A stretch of 64,000 bases of DNA from Rhodanobacter sp. L36 (GTDB lineage: Bacteria; Pseudomonadota; Gammaproteobacteria; Xanthomonadales; Rhodanobacteraceae): positions 519,693 to 583,692 of the forward strand of contig NZ_LMUV01000002.1 of the NCBI RefSeq assembly GCF_009765755.1. The letters run 5' to 3'. Position 1 is the first letter of the stretch. Each line of letters starts with the position of its first letter. Below, piece after piece: positions 2,568-41,460 of this stretch. A program made the translations under genes and the position numbers. The notes under the pieces are model-generated. The model had not been told where the DNA came from. It ran no database searches and saw only the letters and a list, made by a program, of their open reading frames with translations.

Positions 2568-2613
2568 GGATGGCAAACACATGTGGAGCGGAATGGGTGA
2601 AGAACTGCGCGCT

Positions 2614-3699: not shown

Positions 3700-3788
3700 G
3701 GCGGGCTCGCAGCCTTGAAGGACCGTCGAAGCATAACCGAAGCCGCCAGCGCATCGAACGATCCACCCGACGCCGGAACACGTGATTG

Positions 3789-4715: not shown

Positions 4716-5755
4716 GCGACCAACCGGGCAACGGCAGCGTCGACAACAAGGTCATCTGCGAAAGCTGCGGCGCGCGCAACAGCGTGCCGCAAGGCGATGG
4801 CAGCTACATCTGCCAGAGCTGCGGCTGGGTGCAGCACGATCCAATCGGCACCAAGGCGAAGACGGCGCCCATCAAGCGCAGAATGTGGCCAGCGCTGGTG
4901 ATACTTGTCGCACTGATCGCTGGCGCCGTGATTGCATGGCGGCATCTGCACCACCACGCGTTGAGCGACACAAAAGTCGCGTCCTCTTCGGCACCCGCGA
5001 CCGCGGCCGTGGCAACACCAAATGGCAATGGCAACCGACAGGTCACCGTGCAGCATCCGAAGATTCGCGTGATCGACGAAGGGCTCGACTGGACGCTGGA
5101 CGAACTGTTCGCGCCACAGCTTCCGCTATTCGACCGTTCGAAACTCGAACTAGGCACGTTCGAACGCATCATCGATGAAACCGGCCTGCCGACTTTTCGC
5201 GCGCCGCTGAACAACCGAAGCACCGACGCGATCGTGATCAATCCGGTGATGGATTTGCGGCTTTACTCGACCGATGGCACCAGCCAGGTTCCCGCCAGCA
5301 TCGGCGGCCTTCCACCATCGCTGTATCCCGGCGAAAAAGCGTGGGTGAAAATCGGCGACGACGATGACATCAAACCGATCGCACGAATGGACGTCCATTG
5401 GCATCCGTCACGCGGCCTCTCCCTGCCCGGTCCGCGCCGCAAGGCAAACCTCGAGGTCAAGTCGCAGCAGATGCGCACCTGCCATGAGCGCATCATCAAC
5501 GGCCAAGGCGATTTCTCGTTCAACTATCAATGTGTCGACATGGTCGGCACGCTGCACAACACCGACACGCGCTCGATGAAGCTGATCGGCGTGGCCGTGA
5601 CCTATTACGACGATGACAACCGCTACGTCGGCTCGGATTCGACCGATCTCAACACAATCCTTCAACCCGGCGATCAGGTCGACTTCGAACTGCACACCAA
5701 GCTGCTGCGCAAACACGGCTACAAGCGATTCGAACTGCAGTACTACAACCAGTGA
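4712..5755 (+). CDS. zinc-ribbon membrane protein (second of pair)
   Basis: This 347-residue protein has an N-terminal zinc ribbon (C16-x2-C19, C34-x2-C37), one transmembrane segment at about residues 58-77, and a C-terminal domain with the same general order as its upstream neighbour. It overlaps that gene by four bases, which implies one operon. The C-terminal part is rich in beta-strand-like stretches (for example AVTYYDDDNRYVG) and resembles FxLYD/DUF3426-like domains that follow zinc ribbons in other proteins, but this is a weak resemblance. No enzymatic motif is visible. Confidence 0.75.
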   Translation: MSDQPGNGSVDNKVICESCGARNSVPQGDGSYICQSCGWVQHDPIGTKAKTAPIKRRMWPALVILVALIAGAVIAWRHLHHHALSDTKVASSSAPATAAVATPNGNGNRQVTVQHPKIRVIDEGLDWTLDELFAPQLPLFDRSKLELGTFERIIDETGLPTFRAPLNNRSTDAIVINPVMDLRLYSTDGTSQVPASIGGLPPSLYPGEKAWVKIGDDDDIKPIARMDVHWHPSRGLSLPGPRRKANLEVKSQQMRTCHERIINGQGDFSFNYQCVDMVGTLHNTDTRSMKLIGVAVTYYDDDNRYVGSDSTDLNTILQPGDQVDFELHTKLLRKHGYKRFELQYYNQ

Positions 5756-6001
5756 TCCATCGGCTTTGACGCGCTGGGAAAAATAAGTCGTTAGTTGGCG
5801 CTATCCGTGCACGTGTTTGTGCTTTGTGCTTTGCATGGCACTTTCATCGAGTGCGCGCCCGGATGGCCTGCTGCTTTACCCGGTGCCCTGTGCGGCGGTG
5901 AGTCGGGACGCACAGGCCGCGTAGCGGGCATCGACACGATGTGGATGCCTTTTCGCCAGCACATGGATGTGCTGTCGAAAGGCCCGGCACCGGCTCACGG
6001 A

Positions 6002-6027
6002 CTTGCCGGGCATGGATGCCCGGCAAG
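6002..6027. repeat. perfect 12-bp inverted repeat
   Basis: CTTGCCGGGCAT (6002-6013) is followed after GG by its exact reverse complement (6016-6027). It forms a nearly loopless hairpin in a gene-free spacer. No T-run follows, so it is not a classical terminator. Confidence 0.85.
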
Positions 6028-6058
6028 CGCCAAGCGGGTGTCATTTTCTCTGGGTTAC

Positions 6059-6084
6059 TTCTCTTTTGGACAAGCAAAAGAGAA
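6059..6084. repeat. perfect 9-bp inverted repeat, A/T-rich arms
   Basis: TTCTCTTTT (6059-6067) and AAAAGAGAA (6076-6084) are exact reverse complements around an 8-base loop. It belongs to the repeat-like spacer and is probably part of the same dispersed element as the hairpin at 6002-6027. Confidence 0.8.
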
Positions 6085-6218
6085 ATGACTCGGCTGCTGC
6101 AAGCAGACGAAAGCCCTTGCTCCTATTCGACACGCCGGCTTGCCACTAAGGACCAACGAATATTGGAGTTCGACCTAACCATCCCCATCTAGCGAACTTC
6201 ATCCCACGGAGAACAACC

Positions 6219-6599
6219 ATGCCCCTCGTCCGTATCTCCCTTCGCCGCGGCAAATCTCCCGCTCATCTCACTGCGATTCGCAATGGCGTCTACAAGGGGA
6301 TGCGCGAAGCTTTCAACGTGCCGGAGAACGACCGCTTCATCCTGGTCACCCAGCACGACGCCGAAGAGTTCGACTACGACCCAACCTATCTCGGCATCGC
6401 CCGCGGCGACGACCTCGTCATCGTGCAGATCACCTGCAACAGCGGCCGCACGATCGATCAGAAACAAGCGCTGTACCGAGGCATCGCGGAGAATCTTTCC
6501 GCCGATCCGGGCGTACGCTCGGAAGACGTATTCATCAATCTGGTCGAGGTGACAAAAGAGAACTGGTCATTCGGAAATGGTGTCGCGCAGTACGCGTGA
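6219..6599 (+). CDS. tautomerase family protein
   Basis: The 126-residue cytoplasmic protein begins Met-Pro, giving the N-terminal proline used as general base by the 4-oxalocrotonate tautomerase superfamily. The pattern MPLVRISL, a helix around AIRNGVYKGMREAF, and a second beta-alpha unit from DLVIVQITCNSGRT to the C-terminus fit the longer Tautomerase_2 type. The ATG at 6219 follows GGAGAACAACC, a good ribosome-binding site. The gene stands alone. The substrate cannot be predicted from the sequence. Confidence 0.85.
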   Translation: MPLVRISLRRGKSPAHLTAIRNGVYKGMREAFNVPENDRFILVTQHDAEEFDYDPTYLGIARGDDLVIVQITCNSGRTIDQKQALYRGIAENLSADPGVRSEDVFINLVEVTKENWSFGNGVAQYA

Positions 6600-6625
6600 G
6601 TTCGGCGGCCCACGAGCGGTTATTG

Positions 6626-7204
6626 CTATGAAACCCAGACTGGAAGATAAACCAGAATCTGCCAGGTCCCACCTACCTTTCGCAGATAAAAATACTGTCC
6701 CGTTCCACATAGTCGTCCACACCGAAAGCTGGTGTATACGACAGCAATATCGCCCGTCGCTGCGTAGCCGGGCAGACTGATTTTCAACAGGCCGGCCGAG
6801 CCCGGGAACGCTGAGTAAAATGACTCCCAGCCTTTGTGAATTGACGATGCTTTCGTCGACGTCGGGCGGGCGTCTTTCAAGGCCTGTTGAATCTCCCGAT
6901 CGTTCAGAAGATGGACATCGCCAGTGGCGAGACTTTCAGGCAACGCTGTCGGGATTTGCGCTCGGCGTTTCAGGTCGCCGACAGCCCCTGAATTGTCAGC
7001 GGCACCGATATCGGCGTTTGGACCAGGCGCCTCTGTCGTTGAGGAAAGAACGAGGAAACCGTCATCCGACATGTGCCGTTGCGCATTCAGAACGACTTTC
7101 AATACCGCGATATCCACAGCATCCACACGGCTCGCATCCCGACTTGCCAAAATGGTTGGCAAACACAACAGGAAAAACGCCATGCCGATGGTTCGAATGT
7201 TCAT
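6626..7204 (-). CDS. exported protein of unknown function
   Basis: The 192-residue product starts MNIRTIGMAFFLLCLPTIL, a plausible Sec signal peptide ending near residue 20, so it is probably periplasmic. Start 7204 was chosen over the in-frame ATG at 7216 because GAGGACG lies about 6 bases upstream. Near the C-terminus, FRCGRLCGTGQYFYLRK contains two cysteines four residues apart. The final segment (VGGTWQILVYLPVWVS) looks like a beta-strand end. I recognise no family. It lies 104 bp downstream of hemB on the same strand. Confidence 0.65.
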   Translation of the reverse strand: MNIRTIGMAFFLLCLPTILASRDASRVDAVDIAVLKVVLNAQRHMSDDGFLVLSSTTEAPGPNADIGAADNSGAVGDLKRRAQIPTALPESLATGDVHLLNDREIQQALKDARPTSTKASSIHKGWESFYSAFPGSAGLLKISLPGYAATGDIAVVYTSFRCGRLCGTGQYFYLRKVGGTWQILVYLPVWVS

Positions 7205-7308
7205 AGGCGTCCTCATATGATGTCTCGCCCGCAACGAACAGCGACACGCAAAGTCCTGCTGAACGTGTAGCCCTTGCAGCGCCCAACGAAAATAATCGAC
7301 CCAGCCGC

Positions 7309-8367
<1,059 letters not shown>

Positions 8368-8478
8368 TCACGCGGCCTGTGCGTTCGCTGCCGCACATTC
8401 CACGCCGTACGGTCCGTAGGACTGGACGTAGCGACGTTACGTCGGCAGGCTTGCCGTTCCATGCATTCAGGAAGATTC

Positions 8479-9495
8479 ATGAGTCAGTCCAATCGTGCCC
8501 CCACCATGCTCGTCGATCTCGGTGGCACCAACGTGCGTTTCGGCGTGGCCGACCCCTCGCTCGCCAAGCCGCTGCTCAACGAAAGCATCCGTCGTTATCG
8601 CGTGGCCGATTACGATTCGCTGGTATCCACGGCCAAGCATTACCTCGAGGAAACCGGCCTGGAAGTCCGCCGCGCGATCGTGGCCGCGGCTGGCCGCATC
8701 GACGACGGCGAGACGGTGAAGGTCACCAACAATCCGTGGGCGATTTCGGCGAAGCAGACGGCCGCGGCGTTGAATCTCGATTACGTGCATCTGGTCAACG
8801 ACTTCGCCGCGCAGAGCATGGCCGTGACGCTGCTGCAGTCGGAAGACCTGGTAACGGTGGGCACGTTGCCGCCACCGCTGATCGGCGCGGAGGACGAACA
8901 GACATTCGCCATCGTGGGCCCGGGCACCGGCCTCGGCGTCGGTGGATTACTCGTGCGCCAAGGCCATTGCAGCGTGCTGCAGACCGAAGGCGGCCATGCG
9001 GGATTCGCCGCGCATTCGCCGGAAGACATCGAGATCCTCAACTATCTCAACCAGAAGTACGGACGTGTGTCGAATGAGCGCCTGATCTGCGGCCAGGGCC
9101 TGGTGAATCTCTACGACGCGATCTGCCACATCGCCGGCGAAAAAGCCGAATGCATCCTGCCCGAAGACATCACCGCCCGCGCGAAAGCCGGCAGCGATGC
9201 GATGAGCGTGCGCACGGTGGAAACTTTCGCCGGCATCTTCGGCAGCATCGCCGGCGATCTCGTGTTGACGCTCGGCGCTTGGGGCGGCGTGTATCTCACC
9301 GGCGGGTTGATTCCGATCCTGCTGCCGTGGCTCACGAAGGGAAGCTTCCGCGAACGCTTCGAAGCCAAGGGTCGTTTCCGCGACATCATGGAAAAAGTGC
9401 CGACGCAGGCGATCATGAATCCCGAACCCGGCCTGCTCGGCGCAGCCGCGCTGGCGGTGATGGAATCGGGCGGCTCGCTGTTGAAGCCGCGCTAG
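8479..9495 (+). CDS. glk: glucokinase
   Basis: Phosphorylates glucose with ATP in the cytoplasm, feeding central metabolism (Entner-Doudoroff or pentose phosphate, compare gnd at 22441). The 338-residue protein has the ATP-binding LVDLGGTNVRFGV near the N-terminus, the catalytic region VNDFAAQSMAV, GPGTGLGVGGL and EGGHAGFA, typical of bacterial Glk (ROK-independent, E. coli type). The ATG at 8479 follows AGGAAG (8469-8474), so the long in-frame upstream extension is not used. It is transcribed away from hemB. Confidence 0.94.
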   Translation: MSQSNRAPTMLVDLGGTNVRFGVADPSLAKPLLNESIRRYRVADYDSLVSTAKHYLEETGLEVRRAIVAAAGRIDDGETVKVTNNPWAISAKQTAAALNLDYVHLVNDFAAQSMAVTLLQSEDLVTVGTLPPPLIGAEDEQTFAIVGPGTGLGVGGLLVRQGHCSVLQTEGGHAGFAAHSPEDIEILNYLNQKYGRVSNERLICGQGLVNLYDAICHIAGEKAECILPEDITARAKAGSDAMSVRTVETFAGIFGSIAGDLVLTLGAWGGVYLTGGLIPILLPWLTKGSFRERFEAKGRFRDIMEKVPTQAIMNPEPGLLGAAALAVMESGGSLLKPR

Positions 9496-9555
9496 AACGG
9501 AACCGAGAACGCGGTCGTTGTTTCCGACGTTCACGTCGGCACATGCGAGGTGATC

Positions 9556-10806
9556 ATGTCGCGTCATTCACCACGACACATTCTTTCCTTCCACGTCCTG
9601 CTGATGGGCGTTTCAATGGCAGCGATGGCGGCGCCGGCAAAAAGTGCGATGCCAACAGCGAGCGCCGGCATGACACCGGTCACGCCAATCGCGTTTCCTT
9701 CCAAACCTATCGCCACGCAGGAACAGCTCGATGTGTACCTGCGCGATACGCCGTCTTCCCGCTCGCCGTTCAGTGCGCTCACGCCCGGCGGCCAGCGCAG
9801 GTTTCTCGCCAGCCTGGTATTCCACGAGCGAGGCCTTAGTGGATTCAAAACCGACGACCTGCGCTACGACCTCACGCGGGATCAGGCCTTTGCGTTGTTG
9901 CGACTGTTCGGCGAGCAGGCGTTTGCGATCGGCATGGACGCGCGCTATACGCCGCTGTCCGACAGTGAGCGCCACGCAAGCGGCGAACTTGAAAGCCGCT
10001 ATGACACTCTGCTGAAAGCCGGCGAGAAAGACGATGAGAACGCGACACACATCTTGATCCAGCAATACGGTTCGGAATTCGCCGCGTACCAGACCGATTC
10101 GCAGCGACGAACACTCAGCGATCGCGATATGGAGTTCGTGTTTCGCGCAGCAAATATGTCGCTCGGCCGCACTGGCAACGCAGCTTATCTCGCGGACATG
10201 CGTGCGGATTTCGATGAACTCGATCGCCGGCACGTGGCGGAGCGTCCGGTCATCAGCGACTTCTACGATGCATTGATTCGAACCCATCGAACCGATGAAG
10301 CCCGCGCGCTTCTTGCCTCACATCGGCAACTGGATCGCGAACCACCGCCGGTGATGCGCAGCGGCCACGTCGCCAAGGGACAACCAAGTTTGTGGATCGC
10401 CAACGCTGCCAAGCGAGAACTTTTGCGTTTGCGTTTCAATATGCGAGCGCCCGCTCAGATCATCGTGTTCGCTGGAGTCGATTGCCACTTTTGCCACATT
10501 GCCGCAGGCGATCTGGAGCGGAATCCACTGCTGCGCGACATCTTTCGCGAATACGGACAGTGGGTCGCAGACAGCGAGGACGTCACCGCCTTTGATGCCG
10601 TGCGGCAGTGGAACAACTATTATCCCGACATGCGCCTCGGTATCGCGTACCGCGATGACGAACTACCGATGCTGAAGCATCAGGGCACACCGACGTTCTT
10701 TTTTCTCGACCACGGCGCGGTTATCGACACCGTGATTGGATGGCCCGACAAAGGCAACATCGAAGCGATACGTGATGGCCTGCGCAAGATTGATCTGTTG
10801 CGTTGA
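9556..10806 (+). CDS. exported thioredoxin-fold protein with C-terminal CHFC motif
   Basis: The 416-residue product has an N-terminal signal peptide ending around AMAAP, so it acts in the periplasm. Most of the N-terminal 280 residues are charged and helical-looking and unrecognised. The C-terminal ~110 residues are a thioredoxin-like domain: IIVFAGVDCHFCHIA with a CxxC at C310/C313, and the cis-proline region HQGTPTFFFLDHG. This resembles DsbG/DsbC or thiol-disulfide interchange domains, but the overall architecture is unfamiliar. Start 9556 (ATG) lies just after AGG; a GTG at 9550 is an alternative. It sits 60 bp after glk and may be cotranscribed. Confidence 0.72.
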   Translation: MSRHSPRHILSFHVLLMGVSMAAMAAPAKSAMPTASAGMTPVTPIAFPSKPIATQEQLDVYLRDTPSSRSPFSALTPGGQRRFLASLVFHERGLSGFKTDDLRYDLTRDQAFALLRLFGEQAFAIGMDARYTPLSDSERHASGELESRYDTLLKAGEKDDENATHILIQQYGSEFAAYQTDSQRRTLSDRDMEFVFRAANMSLGRTGNAAYLADMRADFDELDRRHVAERPVISDFYDALIRTHRTDEARALLASHRQLDREPPPVMRSGHVAKGQPSLWIANAAKRELLRLRFNMRAPAQIIVFAGVDCHFCHIAAGDLERNPLLRDIFREYGQWVADSEDVTAFDAVRQWNNYYPDMRLGIAYRDDELPMLKHQGTPTFFFLDHGAVIDTVIGWPDKGNIEAIRDGLRKIDLLR

Positions 10807-27791: not shown

Positions 27792-29774
27792 ATGCTCAAT
27801 CCGCAACAACTGGCCGCCGTCGAACATTGCGACAGCCCGCTGCTGGTGCTCGCCGGTGCAGGCTCGGGCAAGACATCAGTGATCACTCAGAAGATCGCGT
27901 ACCTGATCGCGCGCCGAAAACTGCCGCCCTCGAAAATCGCTGCGATCACCTTCACCAACAAGGCCGCGCGCGAAATGCGCGATCGCGTCGCCAAGCTCGT
28001 CACCGAAGAAGACGCGCAAGCGCTCACCGTGTGCACGTTCCACGCGCTGGGCCTGAAATTCCTGCAGATCGAACACGCACGCGCCGGGCTACGTCGCGGT
28101 TTCTCCGTACTCGATGCAGACGACAGCGGCGGCATCATCAAGGAACTCGCGCCGAAAGGCGTCAAGCCCGACGTGCTGTTCGGCATCCGCAACCTGCTCG
28201 GTCGCGCGAAGAACGGCGGCCTCTCGCCGGAGGAAGCGCTCGCCGCTGCGCGCAGCCCACGAGAGCTCGAAGCAGCGACGATCTACGAGATGTATCAACA
28301 ACGCCTCGCTGCATTCAACGCGGTGGATTTCGACGACTTGATCCGGCTGCCATTGCGCATTCTCGAAAGCGACGCCGAATGTCGCGACGCGTGGCGCGAT
28401 CGATTGCGCTATCTGCTGGTGGACGAATACCAGGACACCAACGACGCGCAATATCGATTGCTCAAGGCACTTACCGGCGAGCGTGGCGGCATCACCTGCG
28501 TCGGCGATGACGACCAGTCGATCTACGCATGGCGTGGCGCGAATCCGGAAAACATCGACCAGCTCGGACGCGACTGGCCGAGCCTGCGCGTGATCAAGCT
28601 GGAGCAGAATTATCGCTGCGGCAAACGCATCCTGCGCGCGGCCAACCAGCTGATCGCCAACAACCCGCACCTGCACGAAAAGAAATTGTGGAGCGAGCAT
28701 CCGGAAGGCGCGCCGATTCGCGTGATCGAATGCAAGGAGGCCGAGCACGAAGCCGAACGCGTCGCCTCCATCGCCACCACGCTGGCGGAAAAACACAAAG
28801 CGCGTTGGCATGACATCGCCATTCTTTACCGCGGCAATTTTCAGGCGCGTCCGCTGGAAAAAGCCCTGCGACTCGCGCGCGTGCCGTATCACCTCACCGG
28901 CGCGCTGAGCTTCCTCGATCGCGCTGAAGTGAAAGACCTGCTGTGCTATCTGCGCTTGCTGACCAACCCGAGCGACGACGCCGCGTTCCTGCGCGTGGTC
29001 AACGTGCCCAAGCGTGAAATCGGCGCGACCACGCTGGAGAAACTCGGCCAGTTCGCGCAACAGAAACACAGCTCGCTGCTCGATGCCGTTCGCAGCGACG
29101 GTGTGCTGCGTCAGCTCACGCCGCGGCCAGCGGCTGCGCTCGCCTCATTCGCCAGCCTGCTCGACGAACTCCGCAGCGCATCGTTGCATCAGGGCGCAGC
29201 CGAGCTGGTGGAAACGATTCTGCAGCGCACCGGTTACGCCGCGCAGATTGCCGCTAGCACCAGCGATGCCGCCATGCGTGAACGCAGGCTCGGAAACCTC
29301 AAGGAACTCGCGGACTGGTTCCGCGCCATGCAGAAAGGCGGCAACAGCGCTGGCGATCTCGCATCGCAACTGGCGCTGCTGAGTTACGCCGATCGCGACG
29401 ATCCCGGCAATGCGGTGCGCATGATGACGCTGCACGCGGCGAAAGGCCTCGAATTCCGCTTCGTCTTCATCGTCGGCTGTGAGGATGGCACGCTGCCGCA
29501 CGAAGGCGCGATCGACGAAGGTCGTATCGACGAAGAACGCCGTCTCATGTACGTCGGCATCACCCGCGCCAAGGAATTGCTGACCCTGTCATGGTCGGCC
29601 AAGACCAAACGCTACGGCGACGTCCACAGCAACCAGCCCAGCCGCTTCCTGCACGAGCTGCCGCAAGCCGACCTGCACTGGCAAGGCAAGGATCCCGAAG
29701 CCGACAAGGAAGCCGTGCGCGAAAGCGCGGAGTCGCACATGGCGAGGATCAAGGCGATGCTCGGAAGCAGCTGA
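27792..29774 (+). CDS. rep: ATP-dependent DNA helicase Rep
   Basis: A superfamily 1A 3'-5' helicase that helps replication past bound proteins. The 660-residue product matches E. coli Rep (about 673): MLNPQQLAAVEH start, Walker A AGAGSGKT, TFTNKAAREM, LVDEYQDTND, GDDDQSIYAWRGA, QNYRC, and motif V/VI segments TLHAAKGLEF and YVGITRAKE. The ATG at 27792 gives the family N-terminus. The last ~45 codons (about 29638-29774) recur as a separate copy at 35070-35204; see findings. Confidence 0.96.
   Translation: MLNPQQLAAVEHCDSPLLVLAGAGSGKTSVITQKIAYLIARRKLPPSKIAAITFTNKAAREMRDRVAKLVTEEDAQALTVCTFHALGLKFLQIEHARAGLRRGFSVLDADDSGGIIKELAPKGVKPDVLFGIRNLLGRAKNGGLSPEEALAAARSPRELEAATIYEMYQQRLAAFNAVDFDDLIRLPLRILESDAECRDAWRDRLRYLLVDEYQDTNDAQYRLLKALTGERGGITCVGDDDQSIYAWRGANPENIDQLGRDWPSLRVIKLEQNYRCGKRILRAANQLIANNPHLHEKKLWSEHPEGAPIRVIECKEAEHEAERVASIATTLAEKHKARWHDIAILYRGNFQARPLEKALRLARVPYHLTGALSFLDRAEVKDLLCYLRLLTNPSDDAAFLRVVNVPKREIGATTLEKLGQFAQQKHSSLLDAVRSDGVLRQLTPRPAAALASFASLLDELRSASLHQGAAELVETILQRTGYAAQIAASTSDAAMRERRLGNLKELADWFRAMQKGGNSAGDLASQLALLSYADRDDPGNAVRMMTLHAAKGLEFRFVFIVGCEDGTLPHEGAIDEGRIDEERRLMYVGITRAKELLTLSWSAKTKRYGDVHSNQPSRFLHELPQADLHWQGKDPEADKEAVRESAESHMARIKAMLGSS
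29638..29774 (+). repeat. 3' end of rep, left copy of a direct repeat
   Basis: This 3'-terminal part of rep, including the stop codon, is repeated at 35070-35204. Over the last 30 codons the copies agree at 81 of 90 bases by hand alignment. The two copies bracket the first sulfotransferase/receptor pair. Confidence 0.88.
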
Positions 29775-29848
29775 GCGATTGGCAGGATGCAGGAATGCCC
29801 GCCAATGCTTCGATTTCGATATCTTTGTAAGAAACTTTTGAGGTGGCC

Positions 29849-31450
29849 ATGTCCGATACTGCCGCACTTCTTTCCACGCTGACGCTCGCCTTCAATCAAC
29901 ACGACTGGCGGCGAGCATGGGTTGTTGCGAACGAGTTGCTGATGTTGTCGCCTAGGCATCCAGCCGTGCACTACGTCGCTGGCGTATCCGCCCTGGAGCT
30001 CCAACTGATGCCCAAGGCTCTTTCGCATCTGCACCAGGCTGCCGACCTGGATCCAGATAACATTGACGTCTTGACGCATTTCGCCAAGGCGCTGGCCATC
30101 GTCAAGATGTCGCCGGAAGCACGCAAGGCGGCAGATCGCGCAATGGCTTTGTCGCCTGGAGACGCGATCACCTACGACACACTAGGTGTGGTTTACACGC
30201 AGATTCACGCTCACGTCGAGGCAAGAAACGCATTCGAGCGAGCCGTCGCACTTGATCCGAATCAAGCATCGTATCGGTTCAATCTCGCCACCTCACTGTT
30301 GGCTACTGGTGAAATCAGCGGAGCAAGAGAACAGCTTGAGCATTGCATCAGGCTCGATCCGCAATATTGGAAAGCTCATTCGACGCTGGCGCAGCAAAGC
30401 AGACAGACAGTGGAAGACAATCACATCAGCAGACTTGAGTCGTTGCTGTCGGAACATCAGGGAAATAGCGAAGCGCAAACTTATTTGCACATGGCATTGG
30501 GAAAGGAGCATGAAGATTGCGCCGAGTTTCTCGAGGCTTTCGAGCACTACACGCTGGGCAAGTCAGCTGCTGCTAAAGGGACTGGTTACTCCATCGCACA
30601 AGACGAGGCCCTGTTCGCAGAAATCATGGCGGCTTTCCCAGCCGATCAATTACTGACTGGCTTACATGAAGCCGGCTCAGGGTCGGATGAACCCATATTT
30701 GTGATCGGAATGCCACGTAGTGGAACGACCCTTGTCGAACGCATTATTAGCAGCCATCCGGACGTTTACTCAGCTGGGGAATTGCTGAACTTCGGTCTGA
30801 CTCTCAAGCATCTTTCGGGCACCCGCACGCCAATGCTGCTGGACCTGGAAACCATCAAGCGCGCATCCGGCCTTGATGGAGTGTCGCTCGGCACGCAATA
30901 CATCGCGAGTACACGCCCTGCCACCGGCAAGAAGCCGCATTTCATTGACAAGCTGCCACATAATTTTCTTTACGCGGGATGGATTGCCCGCGCATTGCCG
31001 AACGCCAAGATCATTTGCCTTCGGCGAGATCCTGTAGATACATGCCTCAGCAATTTTCGGCAATTGTTCGCTCGGCATTCGCCGAATTTTGGTTATGCGC
31101 TAAATCTGGTCGATACCGGGCGCTACTACATAATGTTTGACCGCTTGATGGTTCATTGGCAGCGGGTGCTGCCTGGCCGCATCCTTGAAATTTCATATGA
31201 GGCGCTGGTTCAATCACAGGAAAATCGAACACGCGAATTGCTTGAGTTTTGCGGTCTACCCTGGAATGACCTTTGTCTGCAGTTCGAACACAACTCTGCT
31301 CCGGTCAATACTGCCAGCGTCGTACAAGTTCGCTCGCCGATTTATCGCACCTCCCTCAAACGCTGGAAAAAATACGAATCACAGCTAGGTGAACTGCTGG
31401 CCTTGCTTCGCGCAGGCGGCATCGCGATTGAAGCCGAGACATCGCGCTGA
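29849..31450 (+). CDS. TPR-repeat sulfotransferase (copy 1)
   Basis: A 533-residue protein with several tetratricopeptide repeats in the N-terminal ~230 residues and a sulfotransferase domain thereafter. The 5'-phosphosulfate-binding loop IGMPRSGTTLVER is near residue 286, and the 3'-phosphate motif is in NAKIICLRRDPVDTCLSNF. It would transfer sulfate from PAPS to an unknown acceptor. No signal peptide. Start 29849 (ATG after GAGGTGGCC) lies 74 bp behind rep. It is convergent with a TonB receptor, an arrangement repeated by the second pair. Its codons are visibly more A/T-rich than neighbours (31 of 60 G+C at 30661-30720), suggesting transfer. Confidence 0.9.
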   Translation: MSDTAALLSTLTLAFNQHDWRRAWVVANELLMLSPRHPAVHYVAGVSALELQLMPKALSHLHQAADLDPDNIDVLTHFAKALAIVKMSPEARKAADRAMALSPGDAITYDTLGVVYTQIHAHVEARNAFERAVALDPNQASYRFNLATSLLATGEISGAREQLEHCIRLDPQYWKAHSTLAQQSRQTVEDNHISRLESLLSEHQGNSEAQTYLHMALGKEHEDCAEFLEAFEHYTLGKSAAAKGTGYSIAQDEALFAEIMAAFPADQLLTGLHEAGSGSDEPIFVIGMPRSGTTLVERIISSHPDVYSAGELLNFGLTLKHLSGTRTPMLLDLETIKRASGLDGVSLGTQYIASTRPATGKKPHFIDKLPHNFLYAGWIARALPNAKIICLRRDPVDTCLSNFRQLFARHSPNFGYALNLVDTGRYYIMFDRLMVHWQRVLPGRILEISYEALVQSQENRTRELLEFCGLPWNDLCLQFEHNSAPVNTASVVQVRSPIYRTSLKRWKKYESQLGELLALLRAGGIAIEAETSR

Positions 31451-31503
31451 TCGAAAAAAAACTGGGGCGACAGCCTAATGGGAGATCTCTCTTTCGTATA
31501 ACG

Positions 31504-31536
31504 CAAAAAAAGTGACCCCGTTGGTACGGGGTCACT
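31504..31536 (-). terminator. rho-independent terminator of TonB receptor 1
   Basis: AGTGACCCCG (31511-31520) and CGGGGTCACT (31527-31536) are perfect 10-bp arms around TTGGTA. On the minus strand the hairpin is followed by a run of seven T (complement of 31504-31510). It therefore ends the receptor transcript. Confidence 0.9.
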
Positions 31537-31567
31537 CGGATAACAGTTAAATCAACTCAGAAGCGTG

Positions 31568-34492
<2,925 letters not shown>

Positions 34493-34678
34493 TTTGAATT
34501 TTCCCCTAGCAACTACAGGTGAGCCCAACGACACGCGGGCCATTAGAGACACTCACGAACCCTTTGGTTAGTTCAACAAAAGCCCGAATCGGTTCATGGT
34601 GGGTTATGTTTTTAACATATGACGCAAAATCCTTGCAACGTCCTTTTACGAAAATCGCTGTGTCTTACGCCATGAAAG

Positions 34679-34694
34679 ACGTAAATATTTGCGT
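34679..34694. promoter_or_regulatory. candidate operator palindrome, TonB receptor 1
   Basis: ACGTAAATATTTGCGT is a near-palindrome about 187 bases upstream of the receptor start. Its core CG(C/T)AAAT-three bases-TGCG is shared with TCGCAAATTAATGCGA at 40121-40136, upstream of receptor 2. Recurrence upstream of paralogous genes suggests a common regulator; no regulator gene is adjacent. Confidence 0.45.
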
Positions 34695-34962
34695 TTTTGG
34701 CAAAAGGCTTGCGTCGGATAGGCGGCTTGCGGAATCGATAGATGGACCGCACTCGCACGTATGGCATCGCGCGATCGGGGCGATGTTGGCGGACCAGCGA
34801 TTGACCTGACGGATGTCTCGTGCTCGTGGCCCGATGCCGAACATGTGGCGTACCGTTGACAATGTTTGATTGTCTGTTGAGCGCTGCATTTTCGCGATGG
34901 GCGCGACCCGACGCATGTCGGTGAGACGCTGCTGTTGCGTAGGTAGCGACCGAGGATCGTCA

Positions 34963-34978
34963 TCGACTGATCAGTCGA
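34963..34978. repeat. perfect 16-bp palindrome
   Basis: TCGACTGATCAGTCGA is fully self-complementary. It lies in non-coding DNA about 90 bases before the rep-derived junction. No gene starts close by. Confidence 0.8.
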
Positions 34979-35069
34979 CAAGGGTTGGCGCGGATCAGAC
35001 GATATGCGTGACTGTTAAGCAGCCACGCGAAGAACGGCTATGCACAATGGCAGAGTCATTTTCCCATGA

Positions 35070-35204
35070 TCCAGCCGCTTCATGCGCCTGTCGCAGGCCA
35101 ACCTGCACCGGCATGGAACGGATCCCGAAGCCGACAAGGAAGCCGTGCGCGAAAGCGCCGAATCGCATATGGCGAGGATCAAGGCGATGTTGGGGAGCGG
35201 CTGA
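35070..35204 (+). pseudogene. second copy of the rep 3' end (gene fragment)
   Basis: This fragment matches the last ~45 codons of rep (29638-29774) in the same frame and ends at the same stop codon. Over the final 30 codons, eight codons differ: six synonymous and two changing (Lys to Thr, Ser to Gly). Upstream, one codon (Glu) is missing without shifting frame. An in-frame TGA at 35067-35069 and loss of similarity mark the left edge. It could express at most a ~40-residue peptide from ATG 35082, which I consider unlikely. It is followed 98 bp later by TPR-sulfotransferase 2, mirroring the 74-bp spacing behind intact rep. Confidence 0.88.
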
Positions 35205-35302
35205 TTGTTCGCACGCCGCACGCGCGTGTAATCGCCAACGCATGACAGTCGCGCCCGTGCATGATGAAATCCGGGCAGTTCGCACCATCCATCCGGAACG
35301 AC

Positions 35303-36907
35303 ATGACTGACGCAACCGCCCTGTATGCGAGGCTCACAGAAGCGTTCAACCGGCGTGCGTGGCAGCAAGCGGAGAAAATGGCGGACGAGCTACTGAGCAT
35401 CGCCCCGCGTCACCCTGGCGGGTTGTACATCGCAGGGCTGACCAAGTTGGAACTGGGTCAGATGCCGAAGGCGCTGGAGTATCTGCGCAAGGCCACCATC
35501 GTCGAACCGACTCGCGTGGATTTCGCCGTGCAGCTGGCGAAAGCTTTTTCGCTCGTGAACAGAAATAGCGAGGCCGAAGTTGCTGCGAACGCCGCAATGG
35601 CTTTATCTCCCACTCACCCGGCGATGCTGGACACGCTGGGCGTGATCTTCAGTAACGTCGGCGCCTACGCATCCGCAGCCGCCGCATTTCGCGTTGCCGT
35701 CAAATCGGCACCGGCGCACGTGTCCTATCGCTACAACCTGGCGACCGCCCTGGTCGCCGCCGGCGATATCGACGAGGCCGAGACCGAGATCGAAACCTGC
35801 ATCGATCAGGATCCGACCTATTGGCGGGCGCACCTGACACTCGCACAATTGAAGCGGCAGACAGCCGCGAGCCATCACGTCGAACGATTGGAATCGCTGT
35901 TATCAGACGTCAGCGAAACACCCGTCGAAAGACCGGCAAGAATGTGGCTCAACATGGCCATCGCGAAGGAATACGAAGACCTGGCCGACTACCCTAAAGC
36001 TTTCGATCACCTCGTTCTGGGGAAGAATGCTGCGATTGCCGATCGCAGCTATTCCATCGAGCAGGACGAAGCCTTGTTTGCCTCCATCATGCATGCGTTT
36101 CCGCAACCGCAGGCACCGGTCGACGGTTATCCGACACACGAGCCCATCTTCATCATTGGCATGCCGCGCTCCGGCACCACGTTGGTGGAACGCATCATTT
36201 CGAGCCATCTGGATGTGCAATCGGCAGGCGAGTTGCTCAACTTCGCCATGTCGTTGAAATTCGTGTCCGGCAGCAAGACGGAAAAGATGATCGACCCCGA
36301 CATCGTATCCCGCGTGCACGACACCGACTGGAACAGGCTTGGCGAAATCTATCTGTCCAGCACGCGGCCTGCGACGGGACAGCGGCCACGTTTCATCGAC
36401 AAGCTGCCGCACAACTTTCTGTATGCAGGTTTCATCGCCAAAGCCATGCCGAACGCGAAGATCATCTGCCTGCGAAGAAACCCGATGGACACCTGCCTCA
36501 GCAATTTTCGCCAGTTGTTCGCTCCAAATTCGCCGTTCTTCGATTACTCATTCGACCTGCTCGACACGGGCAGGTACTACGTCCTGTTCGATCGACTGAT
36601 GGCTCACTGGCAACGCGTTTTTCCGGGACGCATCCTCGAAATCGACTACGAAGACCTGGTGGATTCGCAGGAAGAAAACTCGCGTCGACTGCTGGAATTC
36701 TGCGACCTGCCATGGAACGACGCGTGCCTGCGCTTCGAGGAAAACTCTTCGCCCGTTGCCACCGCCAGTTCCGTGCAGGTGCGCGAGCCACTTTATCGAA
36801 GCGCCATGGAGCGTTGGAAGAAATATGGATCCAGGCTGGATGAGCTACAAGCCCTCTTGACAAGCGCCGGCATCAAAATAGAACGCCAAGTCGTTTTGAA
36901 CTATTAA
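35303..36907 (+). CDS. TPR-repeat sulfotransferase (copy 2)
   Basis: A 534-residue paralogue of the gene at 29849-31450: N-terminal tetratricopeptide repeats, then the PAPS-binding loop IGMPRSGTTLVER near residue 284 and NAKIICLRRNPMDTCLSNF. The C-terminal domain is about two-thirds identical to copy 1 by eye, the TPR part less so. Start 35303 corresponds to the start of copy 1; GGAACG lies just upstream. No signal peptide. Base composition here is closer to the rest of the window (37 of 60 G+C at 36121-36180). It is convergent with TonB receptor 2. Confidence 0.9.
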   Translation: MTDATALYARLTEAFNRRAWQQAEKMADELLSIAPRHPGGLYIAGLTKLELGQMPKALEYLRKATIVEPTRVDFAVQLAKAFSLVNRNSEAEVAANAAMALSPTHPAMLDTLGVIFSNVGAYASAAAAFRVAVKSAPAHVSYRYNLATALVAAGDIDEAETEIETCIDQDPTYWRAHLTLAQLKRQTAASHHVERLESLLSDVSETPVERPARMWLNMAIAKEYEDLADYPKAFDHLVLGKNAAIADRSYSIEQDEALFASIMHAFPQPQAPVDGYPTHEPIFIIGMPRSGTTLVERIISSHLDVQSAGELLNFAMSLKFVSGSKTEKMIDPDIVSRVHDTDWNRLGEIYLSSTRPATGQRPRFIDKLPHNFLYAGFIAKAMPNAKIICLRRNPMDTCLSNFRQLFAPNSPFFDYSFDLLDTGRYYVLFDRLMAHWQRVFPGRILEIDYEDLVDSQEENSRRLLEFCDLPWNDACLRFEENSSPVATASSVQVREPLYRSAMERWKKYGSRLDELQALLTSAGIKIERQVVLNY

Positions 36908-37027: not shown

Positions 37028-39955
37028 TTAGTTCTGCGCGCCACCGAATCGGTAGTCGGCCTGTAACATCAGCTGACGACCGTAGATGTTGTAGTTCAAC
37101 GTGTTGTAGTACGGGAAGCTTGCCAGCCAACCGGAATCCTTTGGCGGCATCTTGTTGGCAATGTTGTTGGCCAGCACCGACAGATCCAGACCCTTGATCG
37201 GTGTGAACGTCACGCTCAGGTTGGCGGTGATCCAGGGCGACACCTTGCCGGCACCTGGCGAGCCATAACCATTCACCTGCGCCAGGTAATTCGGCGTCGG
37301 TCCATAGCGGTGCAAATAGAGCGTGCTCGACCACCGATCGTGCAGCGACCACGTGAGTGCGCCACTCACGATGCTCTTGAACTCCGAGCTCTGCAGCGGG
37401 TTGGTCAGCTCATTGATCGCGGGACTACCCGGATAATTCACGTAGCTGTGCTTGATCATGTCGTTGTAATCAAGTTGCAGGCCGAACGTGCCGATGGCCG
37501 TGGGCTTGAACACGTACTTCGCTTCGCCGGTCACCGACTCGGTGGACTCGCTCGCGATATTCACGTTGTAGAGTTCGATGTTGCTAAGTTGACCGGTAAG
37601 TGGGTCACGCTGCACCTGCGCGAATGCCGCCACGCAATCCGGCGAATCCGGTGCCAACTGCGGGGGATTTTGTCGGCACTGCGACTCCGTCTTCAGCAGC
37701 TGATCGACATCCTGGACTTGAATCTCGTTGGCGATATCGATATGGAGATAATCCAGCGAGATGCTCATCCGCTCCAGTGGGGCCCATACAAATCCCGCCG
37801 TCCAGCTCTTGGCGGTCGCCGGCTTCAAATCGGGGTTAGAGAGAGTCGTGCCTAACACCTGTGCCGGGAAATTCTGGCTGCAATCCTTGTTGCCGTTCTG
37901 CGAGCAGGTGTAATAGTCGGTTACCTGCTCGTAAAAACCACTGGGCCCGAGGAAAACCGACGACATGTCGGGAGCGAGGAAGGCCGTGGAATAGCTGCCA
38001 CGAAGCAACAGCGTGTCGAACGGACGATATTCCAGCCCCGCCTTGTAGGTGAACCGATGATCGGATGCCTGGTCAGTGTCGTAGTAGTCGTAACGACCCG
38101 ACAAATCAAGCGTCAGCTGTTTCAGCAGCGGCAGGTTGAATTCGAAGGCGCCAGCGTCATGCGTGCGGGTACCACCGCCCGACGTTGCGGTTTGTCCCCA
38201 CACCGCCCCGCTGGTGATTAACGGATTTGCCGGCTGATACCACGCCTGACTGCCGCCCTCGGCCAAGATGGCGAGGGAGGCATCGCCGCCCGGCAGGCTG
38301 AACAAGCTGCTGTTCGTCACCTGTGCGTGTGTGTTGTTGATCCAGGTATTTGAGAAGCTGTTGATGTTCTGCGTGAAGCTCGCAAACTGCGCTGGGGTAA
38401 TCGGTGAGTAGAGCGCCTGATAATTCGGGTTGACCTTTTCCAGACCCAACGCGTCGTAGCCGTCTGGATTACCCGGGTCGACTGGACGCAGAATCTTGTC
38501 GAAGAAGGCATCCATCGGCGCTGCCATGCGACTCGGAGTACTTGTGCTGGTGCGATCACCAGAACGCAGGAAGTAGACATCCCAGTCCCAGTTCGACTCG
38601 CCGAAGGTGCCCTTCGCTCCGATATCGGCCTGGTACATCAGGTCGTCCTGCCGTCCCAACTGGCTGTAGTAATCGTCGCCCACTTCCTCGGGCCCGAAGA
38701 TGCGTTCGGGAAGTATGATCGTGCCGCCACCGGACGGACCCACGCCCTTGCTCACGTCATCGAGATAGGTACCCTCATCGGAGGCTTCCCAGAAGTTGTA
38801 ATCCGACCCCGGGGTGAGCCGTTCCTGCTGCCAGTCGACCAGTACATCGCTGTAGAGGCGGACATGATCGTTGATGTCGTACTTCAGCTTGAGCATGCCG
38901 TCGTAGCTGCGCGAGGCGTTGCCCAGGGTGGTGTAGCCAAGAACGTTTGGCGACCCGCAGTACGTTCCGGTGCGCGACGCTACCGAGGAATGCGAAGCGA
39001 CCGTCGTGCCATGGAACAATACGCTGTCTGCAGCGCAGTTGTCGGGCGCGGAAAGGTAACCACCCTCGACTAAGTTGTAGTTTGTAAGCCCGTTCAAGAA
39101 ATCATCCACGGTACCGAACTGGGCGACCAACGCGGCAGGTTCGTTCGTGCTGCCGCTAGGCACTTGTCGGGTCAGGGAACGCTGATAAGCCCAGATCGGG
39201 CTGGCATTGTCGAACTCGAACGAACCCAGCACATTGAGTTTGCCGAAGTCATGACCGAAGGTGATGCTCATGGTCTGATTCGCGCCGCCGCCGTCCTTGT
39301 AGTTGCTGGTGCGGGCAAACACCTCGACGCCGTCCATGTGCTGCTTGGTGATGATGTTGATGACACCTGCAATGGCATTGGAACCGTAAATCGACGACGC
39401 ACCGCCAGGCAGGATGTCGATGTGATCGACCATGCTGAGCGGGATATTGGAAATGTTGGTGAAGTTGCTCTGTCCGTTATAGAGCTGGCCGAACTGGGTG
39501 ATCGGCTTGCCATCGATCAGGGTCAACGTGAATTCGGGATTTAACCCATACAGGCTTACCGCCTGGGCGCCTTGGGTGAAACTGGCGCTTGACTGCGCGC
39601 CCTGCACCGCGCCGGTGGCCTGCACCGCGCCCTGCAATGCTTCCGCTACGGTGGTGAAGCCCCTGGCCTTGATGTCTTCAGCCGTGATCGTATAAACCGG
39701 GGCTGCCGTCTGAATCTGCGCATTGTTGATCAGCGATCCAGTGACCGTGACTGCGTCGAGGCGCTTGGCCTTCTTTTCGGCATCCGTGGTCTGGTCGGTT
39801 GTGTCCGACGACTGGCTGTCCTGTTGCGTGGATGAGGACTGATCCGTGGCGGTCTGAGTGGTGGCCTGCGTCGTTGTCGCGGCGGCCTGAGCAATGGAGC
39901 CCAGACCCAACGCCAAAGCTGCAAGCACTGCAGCAGCGAGCTTGGATTTCAACAT
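37028..39955 (-). CDS. TonB-dependent outer-membrane receptor (copy 2)
   Basis: A 975-residue receptor paralogous to that at 31568-34492. It has a signal peptide (MLKSKLAAAVLAALALGLGS, cleavage near IAQA-A), a long Thr/Gln/Ser/Asp-rich linker of about 45 residues, plug segments LDAVTVTGSLINNAQIQTAA, SMVDHIDILPGGASSIYGSN and AIAGVINIIT, then the barrel. The C-terminus reads QADYRFGGAQN. The start 39955 follows GGGGAAAGTC, matching the copy 1 leader; an in-frame ATG at 39967 is less likely. The low-complexity linker is longer than in copy 1. Confidence 0.93.
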   Translation of the reverse strand: MLKSKLAAAVLAALALGLGSIAQAAATTTQATTQTATDQSSSTQQDSQSSDTTDQTTDAEKKAKRLDAVTVTGSLINNAQIQTAAPVYTITAEDIKARGFTTVAEALQGAVQATGAVQGAQSSASFTQGAQAVSLYGLNPEFTLTLIDGKPITQFGQLYNGQSNFTNISNIPLSMVDHIDILPGGASSIYGSNAIAGVINIITKQHMDGVEVFARTSNYKDGGGANQTMSITFGHDFGKLNVLGSFEFDNASPIWAYQRSLTRQVPSGSTNEPAALVAQFGTVDDFLNGLTNYNLVEGGYLSAPDNCAADSVLFHGTTVASHSSVASRTGTYCGSPNVLGYTTLGNASRSYDGMLKLKYDINDHVRLYSDVLVDWQQERLTPGSDYNFWEASDEGTYLDDVSKGVGPSGGGTIILPERIFGPEEVGDDYYSQLGRQDDLMYQADIGAKGTFGESNWDWDVYFLRSGDRTSTSTPSRMAAPMDAFFDKILRPVDPGNPDGYDALGLEKVNPNYQALYSPITPAQFASFTQNINSFSNTWINNTHAQVTNSSLFSLPGGDASLAILAEGGSQAWYQPANPLITSGAVWGQTATSGGGTRTHDAGAFEFNLPLLKQLTLDLSGRYDYYDTDQASDHRFTYKAGLEYRPFDTLLLRGSYSTAFLAPDMSSVFLGPSGFYEQVTDYYTCSQNGNKDCSQNFPAQVLGTTLSNPDLKPATAKSWTAGFVWAPLERMSISLDYLHIDIANEIQVQDVDQLLKTESQCRQNPPQLAPDSPDCVAAFAQVQRDPLTGQLSNIELYNVNIASESTESVTGEAKYVFKPTAIGTFGLQLDYNDMIKHSYVNYPGSPAINELTNPLQSSEFKSIVSGALTWSLHDRWSSTLYLHRYGPTPNYLAQVNGYGSPGAGKVSPWITANLSVTFTPIKGLDLSVLANNIANKMPPKDSGWLASFPYYNTLNYNIYGRQLMLQADYRFGGAQN

Positions 39956-40287: not shown

Positions 40288-41316
40288 TTAGATCAGCTTT
40301 TCGGACTCGAGCTCGCTCTTCAGATACGCGTAGTAGATCGGCGCTGCAATCACGCCGGACAATCCGAAGACCGCTTCCATCACGACCATGGCAATCAGGA
40401 GTTCCCAGGCGCGGGCGTGGATTTGCGTGCCGACGATGCGGGCGTTGAGGAAGTATTCGAGCTTGTGGATGAGCACCAGGAAACACAGGGCGGCGATGCC
40501 CACGCCAAGCGATACCGACAGGGCGGCGATGGTGACGGCAGTGTTGGAAAGCAGGTTGCCCACCACGGGCAACAGGCCAACGATGAAGGTCAGCACGACC
40601 AGCGTTTTGGACAGTGGTACGTGAATGCCGAACAGCGGCAGTGCGCCGAACAGGAAGATTGCGGTGAACACGGTATTGATCACGGAAATCTTGATCTGCG
40701 CGAAGACGATATTGTGGAAGGCTTCTGCCAGTCGTTGCGAGCGCTGGCCGAGCGCGGCTGCCAGGGGCCCGACCTGATGTGCGGGTCGGGCACGGCTTAA
40801 TGCGACGATCGCGCCGAGAACCAGCCCGATAAGAATGTGCACGAAAGTACGTGCGGTTTCCTTGCCGATGTGCTGCAGGCTGAGCGCATGTTTGTGCGTG
40901 AGTTCGACGGCCATCACGCGCAATTCGTCGACGCTGTCGGGCAATGAGCCCACCAGTGCGGCCGGAAGTTGCTGGCGCGCGCGATCCACCAGCGGCATCA
41001 GGTGGTTTTGCCAGAGTTCCTCGGGATTGCCGATTTCATTGCGGACGAAGCTGATGGCCGCGAGCGTCAGCAAAATCAGTAAGCCCACCACCAGCACGCC
41101 CAGAAAAGCCACCACCAGCATTCGCGCGCGCGCGCCGGCGAGTCGACGTCCTAACAACGGACTCACCGTGTGCACCAGTTCGTAGACGAGCAGGCCTGCC
41201 AGCAGCACCGGCAGCAGTCTCAACCCGAGTATCAGAAACAGGGCCGCGCCGGCCAGCATATAGCTGACGATCTGGATGGTGCGGGTGGGTTGGTTGAAGC
41301 CTGTTGTCGATTGCAT
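40288..41316 (-). CDS. AI-2E family transporter (PerM/UPF0118)
   Basis: A 342-residue inner-membrane protein with about seven or eight hydrophobic segments, including VSYMLAGAALFLILGLRLLP near the N-terminus and VVLTFIVGLLPVVGNLL. The C-terminal pattern (VGTQIHARAWELLIAMVV, FGLSGVIAAPIYYAYLKSEL) is the AI-2E/PerM signature. Members export small molecules or act as Na+/H+ antiporters; the substrate here is unknown. The ATG at 41316 was chosen by family length; an in-frame ATG at 41364 with GGCGAG upstream is possible. Confidence 0.88.
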   Translation of the reverse strand: MQSTTGFNQPTRTIQIVSYMLAGAALFLILGLRLLPVLLAGLLVYELVHTVSPLLGRRLAGARARMLVVAFLGVLVVGLLILLTLAAISFVRNEIGNPEELWQNHLMPLVDRARQQLPAALVGSLPDSVDELRVMAVELTHKHALSLQHIGKETARTFVHILIGLVLGAIVALSRARPAHQVGPLAAALGQRSQRLAEAFHNIVFAQIKISVINTVFTAIFLFGALPLFGIHVPLSKTLVVLTFIVGLLPVVGNLLSNTAVTIAALSVSLGVGIAALCFLVLIHKLEYFLNARIVGTQIHARAWELLIAMVVMEAVFGLSGVIAAPIYYAYLKSELESEKLI

Positions 41317-41460
41317 GCGCGGCCACGTTCGAGGGATTGCGGCCAGTCTGTCAGCAGGCAGCATGGCTCGCCAGCGTGAGTGCGTGAAAGTCGCCGCGAC
41401 ATCGCGCTGTCGTAAACTGCGGCGATTCTGTGCCGTCTTTCCTCAAGCCAAGGGGTATTC

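What the first reader, a model, noticed from the sequence alone, without database searches (positions are those of the whole stretch)
29638..35204. A sulfotransferase/TonB-receptor cassette bracketed by two copies of the rep 3' end
The last ~45 codons of rep (29638-29774) recur in the same orientation at 35070-35204, between two tandem TPR-sulfotransferase/TonB-receptor pairs. Seen directly: the copy ends at the same stop. In the final 30 codons eight codons differ, six synonymously, and one upstream codon is lost in frame. A useless remnant should not change this way, so the fragment was probably part of a working rep until recently. The simplest reading is that a ~5.3-kb block (29775-35069) entered by recombination within rep, bringing its own rep 3' end and displacing the resident end together with pair 2. 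The spacing behind each rep end (74 and 98 bp) is also similar. No integrase is present, so homologous recombination with a relative's locus is more likely than a site-specific element.
Basis: partly seen in the sequence, partly recalled or inferred. Interest (0 to 1): 0.75.

Follow-up and report, generated by a model that had tools for sequence, protein, structure and literature searches.

The report
Helicase-gene scar from one-sided recombination
A second, decaying copy of the end of the rep helicase gene most likely marks where a foreign pair of genes was spliced in beside rep, by matching DNA on one side and joining without a match on the other; a related bacterium shows the same kind of scar at the same spot, so it is a good example of a known process.

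Summary
The repeat is real: window 35071-35204 matches rep 29638-29774 at 86% (E 5e-40) and ends at the same stop. No copy of comparable length was found in 97 other loci of the family. The genus is Rhodanobacter.

The interval between rep and an AI-2E-transporter gene is an accessory hotspot holding zero to several TPR-sulfotransferases (S) and TonB receptors (T), other cargo, or almost nothing. S1/T1 are sister to one adjacent pair in Rhodanobacter sp. B05; S2/T2 belong to other clades. The nearest sampled species has only an S2-type gene behind rep. So S1-T1 probably came later, and duplication of one pair is contradicted. Both rep ends carry RES...MLGS, seen in no other rep end, and group together (99.8/99), so the anchor came from a close relative.

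The fragment is not a recently working rep end: its first third has lost residues near-invariant in congeners.

The best evidence for mechanism is Rhodanobacter sp. T12-5: rep, a gltS tail matching other species' rep-gltS allele, and, where that match stops, a rep 3' scar 122 bp before S-T. A third scar, in G064, is weak.

Reading: homology-facilitated illegitimate recombination anchored in rep, as proposed for Vibrio T6SS arrays.

The parts
27792..29774 (+). rep (DNA helicase Rep, 660 aa), intact; carries the present 3' end
   Evidence: Pfam UvrD-helicase/UvrD_C; best NCBIfam hit TIGR01074 rep, 871 bits, below that model's 951-bit cut-off; 94% identical to G004
29638..29774 (+). rep 3' end, the copy still part of rep (inferred to have arrived with the block)
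   Evidence: pairs with 35071-35204
29849..31450 (+). S1: TPR + tyrosylprotein-sulfotransferase-like protein, 533 aa, GC3 58%
   Evidence: PF13469; PDB protein-tyrosine sulfotransferase match over residues 280-484, E 1e-10; composition
31510..31537 (-). hairpin with T run between the convergent S1 and T1 genes (terminator-like)
   Evidence: 7 such sites in the region against 5.9 expected in shuffles, so weak on its own
31568..34492 (-). T1: TonB-dependent receptor, 974 aa
   Evidence: PF00593/PF07715
34493..35070 (.). T1 upstream region running to the right-hand joint; no clear homologue found, so the joint cannot be read base by base
   Evidence: 197 family genomes: outside the window's own genome only short matches, best E 2e-4
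35071..35204 (+). rep 3'-end scar (displaced resident end), decayed in its first third
35303..36907 (+). S2: TPR + sulfotransferase, 534 aa
   Evidence: its 12-row clade includes the S gene of G004
37028..39955 (-). T2: TonB-dependent receptor, 975 aa
   Evidence: clade with T of G029, G044 and G065
40288..41364 (-). AI-2E-family transporter gene, usual right border of the variable interval
   Evidence: PF01594; found downstream of rep in 42 of 45 congener pieces, the other 3 being cut before it

Best explanation
In an ancestor with rep-S2-(T2)-transporter, a linear DNA piece from a close relative carrying rep's 3' part followed by S1-T1 paired with the resident rep. Its left side recombined homologously within rep, so rep stayed whole but now ends with the incoming 3' end. 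The resident's last codons were left as a scar (35071-35204) at the normal distance from S2. Shown: the repeat, its kinship to this rep, the decay of its first third, the separate histories of the two pairs, the variable locus. Inferred: the order of events, the linear donor piece, and the illegitimate joint, whose donor flank is unknown here. The clearest footprint of the same route is in Rhodanobacter sp. T12-5.
For: Fragment is rep's 3' end. RES and MLGS are in both window copies and in 0 of 60 other rep ends and 0 of 80 named loci, the two sets overlapping. Trees of the last 44 codons (49 rows) join fragment and window rep: IQ-TREE 99.8/99, FastTree 0.953. S1 is sister to G003_3715 and T1 to the next gene G003_5487, both 100/100; S2 and T2 fall in other clades. 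G004, the nearest sampled species (0.987 and 0.985), has rep, one S2-clade S, transporter. S1 GC3 58% against 77% in rep. T12-5 (G031): behind rep a gltS 3' relic (PF03616, E 2e-16), 85% identical over 269 nt to the region behind rep of G021, alignment ending at locus position 2290; a rep-3' match of 33 columns at 91% fills 2292-2323 up to the stop, 122 bp before S. G064: rep-3'-like 59 nt at 75%, 67 bp before a second S. Of 5 places in 97 loci matching rep ends at E<=1e-3, 2 lie within 200 nt upstream of an S on its strand; such windows are 0.45% of strand-bases, P 2e-4 (window left out).
Against: Neither the pre-insertion state of this very lineage nor the donor is sampled. No breakpoint is visible inside the window's rep; over the last 44 codons the window rep is by plain identity nearer to L081 (90.2%) than to the fragment (86.0%). 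The right-hand joint cannot be mapped because 34493-35070 has no clear homologue. G004 could have lost S1-T1 rather than never had it. Composition sets off S1 only: T1 (GC3 70.5%) is like S2 (71.6%), and the B05 homologues of S1-T1 are at 82-83%, so B05 is not like the donor. The G064 scar scores 23.1 bits where chance matches elsewhere reach 26.5, and a profile gives the T12-5 scar only E 1.9; both rest on position as well. The placing test was framed after the hits were seen.
Confidence: 0.72

Rival explanations
1. Unequal crossover between two chromosomal alleles (rep-S1-T1 and rep-S2-T2): one illegitimate exchange joins the region behind T1 of one allele to the rep end of the other. rep is then wholly from the first allele and no piece entered rep.
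For: Gives the same final map in one step; single-pair loci of both T types exist in relatives (G031 and G028 with T1-type, G029 with T2-type; G028 and G029 pieces are cut); the two rep ends are close kin.
Against: Needs both alleles side by side in one cell; explains the truncated gltS tail in T12-5 less simply. Not separable from the main reading with present data.
Confidence: 0.16
2. Tandem duplication of a rep-3'-S-T unit in this lineage, followed by divergence of the two pairs.
For: Same order and orientation, similar spacing. In G064 the two S genes are sisters, so there a duplication is possible.
Against: S1/S2 56% and T1/T2 40% identical in protein while the scar is 86% identical to rep in DNA; each pair has its own closest kin in other species.
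Confidence: 0.04
3. The scar is kept because it does something: its last 26 codons hold a promoter or leader for S2, or a 40-codon ORF starting at its new ATG is translated.
For: Fragment-side changes are fewer in codons 17-42 (2-3 in 78 nt) than in codons 0-16 (8 or 10 in 48 nt, by gap placement); Fisher P from 0.001 to 0.02. A stretch of nearly 40 nt is identical to rep.
Against: No sigma-70-type promoter match near it (consensus scan only). The test was chosen after seeing the data; the difference may be chance, clustered change near the joint, or patchy conversion by rep.
Confidence: 0.07

Closest known systems
Homology-facilitated illegitimate recombination as proposed for T6SS effector-immunity arrays in Vibrio cholerae (PMC5361080; passages seen)
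   Same: A conserved upstream stretch anchors the incoming module; the far end joins without homology; the old material is shifted downstream, and one proposed step there shifts back the 3' end of an effector gene.
   Different: The anchor here is a housekeeping helicase gene outside the module, the whole resident pair is kept, and the cargo is a sulfotransferase/TonB-receptor pair. Inferred from sequence in both cases.
Homology-facilitated illegitimate recombination seen in experiments (PMC3240628, title and start of abstract seen in the listing; Acinetobacter, Pseudomonas and Streptococcus work seen only as mentioned in the passages)
   Same: One homologous end, one illegitimate end, linear DNA.
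   Different: Those are laboratory events; here only a footprint is seen.
Hotspots of horizontal transfer between conserved genes (PMC5635113, start of abstract seen)
   Same: A fixed interval with different cargo among species.
   Different: Here one-sided joints appear to leave scars of the left border gene.

Membership tests
Homology-facilitated illegitimate recombination footprint | One side of the insert lies in sequence homologous between donor and recipient | tested here: met
   The rep 3' end at the left of the block is kin of the scar; in T12-5 rep and the following gltS tail align to the rep-gltS allele
Homology-facilitated illegitimate recombination footprint | The other side is a joint between non-homologous sequences | tested here: inconclusive
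   T12-5: donor-like alignment ends at 2290 and the rep scar starts at 2292. Window: donor flank unknown
Homology-facilitated illegitimate recombination footprint | Incoming block has a history separate from the resident module | tested here: met
   S and T trees; GC3 of S1, not of T1
Homology-facilitated illegitimate recombination footprint | Resident material is displaced downstream with a remnant of the anchor gene | tested here: met
   35071-35204 ahead of S2; T12-5 and, less surely, G064
Site-specific mobile element | Integrase or transposase, or terminal inverted repeats around the block | tested here: not met
   No such domain in the seven proteins scanned (smaller ORFs not scanned); the four inverted-repeat pairs in 29500-35400 do not bracket the block
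Tandem duplication | The two units are sisters | tested here: not met
   S1/T1 and S2/T2 in different clades
Tyrosylprotein sulfotransferase (TPST-like) | Sulfotransferase domain of TPST kind with PAPS-binding loop and activity | tested here: inconclusive
   PF13469 E 2e-49 and PDB TPST matches, best E 1e-10; the sequence shows PRSGTTL in S1 and S2 (meaning of the motif recalled, from no call); activity not testable here

The most novel reading that the evidence does not exclude
In Rhodanobacteraceae the 3' end of rep is a standing recombination anchor: cargo at the rep-transporter hotspot is stacked by repeated one-sided events, each leaving a rep-end scar before the displaced module, so that scars give the order of insertions; S-T pairs would be an exchangeable surface module stacked this way.
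Probability: 0.4. Interest if true: 0.5.

Novelty: new member of a known kind. Interest (0 to 1): 0.36.

Why it matters
It gives a readable footprint of one-sided recombination next to a core gene, with a second case in another species where the donor allele is recognisable. It shows how a locus can stack receptor modules with no integrase in sight, and it marks the rep-to-transporter interval of Rhodanobacter as an accessory hotspot that carries a Zorya defence system in one species.

Tried and rejected
Tandem duplication: contradicted by the trees. Donor search: 34493-35075 against 197 family genomes gave, outside the window's own genome, only short matches (best E 2e-4). Mosaic breakpoint in rep: sliding identity for the window and T12-5 showed no clean switch. 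Promoter in the scar: none by consensus scan. Profile of rep ends (46 of the 61 then in hand) over 233 family genomes: among the matches listed (down to about E 2e-18) second copies appear only in the window's genome and in G017 and G266, where both copies are near full length and on separate contigs; weaker matches were cut from the list and 8 of 233 genomes had none. With laxer filters on 38 of these genomes (37 picked from those with two or more matches, plus G031) chance matches reached 26.5 bits. In G041, another array with an S behind a T, no scar was found. In G064's genus only that genome is held. No paper on the TPR-sulfotransferase/TonB-receptor pair came up in three searches of the held library, which is not proof of absence. 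Corrections on the way: codon polarisation off by one, redone, gap placement bettered, which weakens that test from P 0.001 to 0.007-0.02; T2 query out of frame, redone; one search stopped on an error and was redone; supports of the rep-end trees re-read as splits, because re-rooting had moved the IQ-TREE labels. Rows dropped before counts: S matches under 400 aa and T matches under 700 aa for the trees, so the broken S of G016 is not in; loci with PlsB matches of 700 aa or less, among them B05, in the rep+PlsB tree; L077 in the rep trees; hits within 60 nt of the rep stop in named loci.
Full report
Observation. The last part of rep (29638-29774) recurs at 35071-35204 on the same strand: 86% over 137 columns, one codon lost in frame, same stop (E 5e-40). 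This is not chance.

Where it is. From this I take the genus to be Rhodanobacter in the sense of the collection.

The locus in relatives. I fetched the stretch behind rep for 60 genome pieces: 45 pieces of 44 congeners (G017 gave two) and 15 of other genera of the family, out of more family genomes held. Counting S matches over 400 aa and T matches over 700 aa and 35% identity, of the 45 congener pieces 24 have neither before the transporter gene, 8 S only (one of them, G016, broken), 1 T only, 3 S-T (two cut before the transporter) and 9 longer arrays (SST, SS'T, SSST, SSSTT, SSTST, SSTT three times, and SSSS cut short). Some of the 24 hold other cargo: gltS with gamma-glutamyltranspeptidase and a weak receptor match (G022), a prolyl-oligopeptidase-family peptidase with a receptor (G027; alike ORFs in G005, G006), Zorya genes (G008). 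Eighty named loci (43 share a rep word with a genome piece, 37 are new) show a like range. With the window's rep end and fragment as queries, no second copy was found in the 60 pieces (E 1e-3) or the 80 named loci (E 1e-2, beyond 400 bases from the rep end).

Two pairs, two histories. S1/S2 are about 56% and T1/T2 about 40% identical. In trees of 39 S and 26 T proteins, S1 is sister to one S of B05 (72%) and T1 to the T next to it (77%), both 100/100; S2 lies in a 12-row clade with the single S of G004, and T2 with T of G029, G044 and G065. The T tree has two very long branches, and the program warned that joins near the T2 group may be false. In rep+PlsB (36 rows, B05 not among them) and in rep DNA (48 rows) the window's sister is G004 (0.987, 0.985), which has rep, one S2-clade gene and the transporter. 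GC3 is 58% in S1, 70.5% in T1, 71.6% in S2, 75% in T2, 77% in rep; the B05 homologues of S1-T1 have 82-83%. So S1-T1 is the likelier newcomer, from a donor unlike B05 in composition.

The rep ends. Both window copies read RES and end MLGS. None of the other 60 rep ends and none of 80 named loci has either run; the serine itself occurs once (G023, QES), and G004 ends MLGNR. In trees of the last 44 codons fragment and window rep form a group (IQ-TREE 99.8/99, FastTree 0.953). By identity the fragment is nearest to the window rep (86.0%, next 82.2%; last 27 codons 91.4%, next 85.2%), while the window rep over all 44 codons is nearer to L081 (90.2%), as the fragment has decayed. Polarised on 45 congener loci, the fragment side has 10 changes (8 with the better gap) in codons 0-16 and 2-3 in codons 17-42, while 3 of the late differences lie on the rep side. 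So the fragment has lost a stretch near-invariant in rep and is a decayed remnant. Why its last part is better kept is unexplained.

The same footprint elsewhere. In T12-5 (L048) the rep-S distance is 462 bp, the one outlier of 20. Behind rep lies the 3' end of a gltS in the opposite direction (PF03616, E 2e-16), 85% identical over 269 nt to the region behind rep in G021; G035, G009, G022, G019 and named locus L115 match too. The alignment with G021 stops at 2290; 2292-2323 is 91% identical to rep ends over 33 columns, ends at the stop, and S starts 122 bp later. This is what would remain if a rep-gltS piece entered at rep of a rep-S-T locus and joined illegitimately inside the resident rep. 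G064 (L084) has a 59-nt, 75% rep-like stretch 67 bp before its second S (nhmmer E 2e-5). In 97 loci (window left out) 5 places match rep ends at E<=1e-3; 2 of 5 lie within 200 nt upstream of one of 52 S genes on its strand, 0.45% of strand-bases, P 2e-4. That test was framed after the hits were seen. Against it: with another profile the G064 stretch scores 23.1 bits where chance matches elsewhere reach 26.5, the T12-5 stretch gets only E 1.9 by itself, and G064's two S genes are sisters, so a duplication is possible there.

Whole-genome check. Among the listed matches of a rep-end profile over 233 family genomes the window's fragment is the only second copy apart from G017 and G266, which have two near-complete copies on separate contigs; weaker matches were not listed.

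Reading. A piece with rep's end, S1 and T1 recombined homologously in rep on its left and illegitimately on its right, leaving the resident rep end as a scar before S2. The order of events and the right-hand joint are inferred; the donor flank is unknown. One unequal crossover between two alleles would give the same map. A route of this kind was proposed for Vibrio T6SS arrays (PMC5361080, passages).

What the cargo is. S1 and S2 are TPR proteins with a TPST-like half (for S1); T1 and T2 are TonB receptors that reach no curated cut-off naming a ligand. The genome holds six further S-like and two further T1-like matches at the thresholds used, none of these T near an S. That the pair serves a common partner is a guess.

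Noticed in passing
L050 (G008, R. fulvus Jip2) 3016-10540: Matches to all four Zorya type I proteins (ZorA, ZorB, ZorC, ZorD) sit between rep and the AI-2E transporter gene.
   Followed up: partly
L047 (G022); also L042, L046, L051, L070, L115: gltS behind rep in the opposite direction (Pfam checked in G022, the others by DNA match); in G022 with gamma-glutamyltranspeptidase further on.
   Followed up: partly
L071 (G027), L057 (G005), L056 (G006): A weak receptor match next to an S9-type peptidase ORF in the same interval (Pfam checked for the peptidase of G027 only).
   Followed up: no
L035 (G016) 2056-3638: Its only S gene matches in five pieces, so it looks like a broken gene.
   Followed up: no
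L073 (G010), just behind rep and about 13 kb further: Copies of a repeat of about 30-36 nt in both orientations.
   Followed up: no
window 35082-35204: The scar happens to hold a 40-codon ORF from a new ATG to the old rep stop; nothing shows that it is translated.
   Followed up: no
window 35071-35204: First third much more changed than the rest on the fragment side; unexplained.
   Followed up: partly
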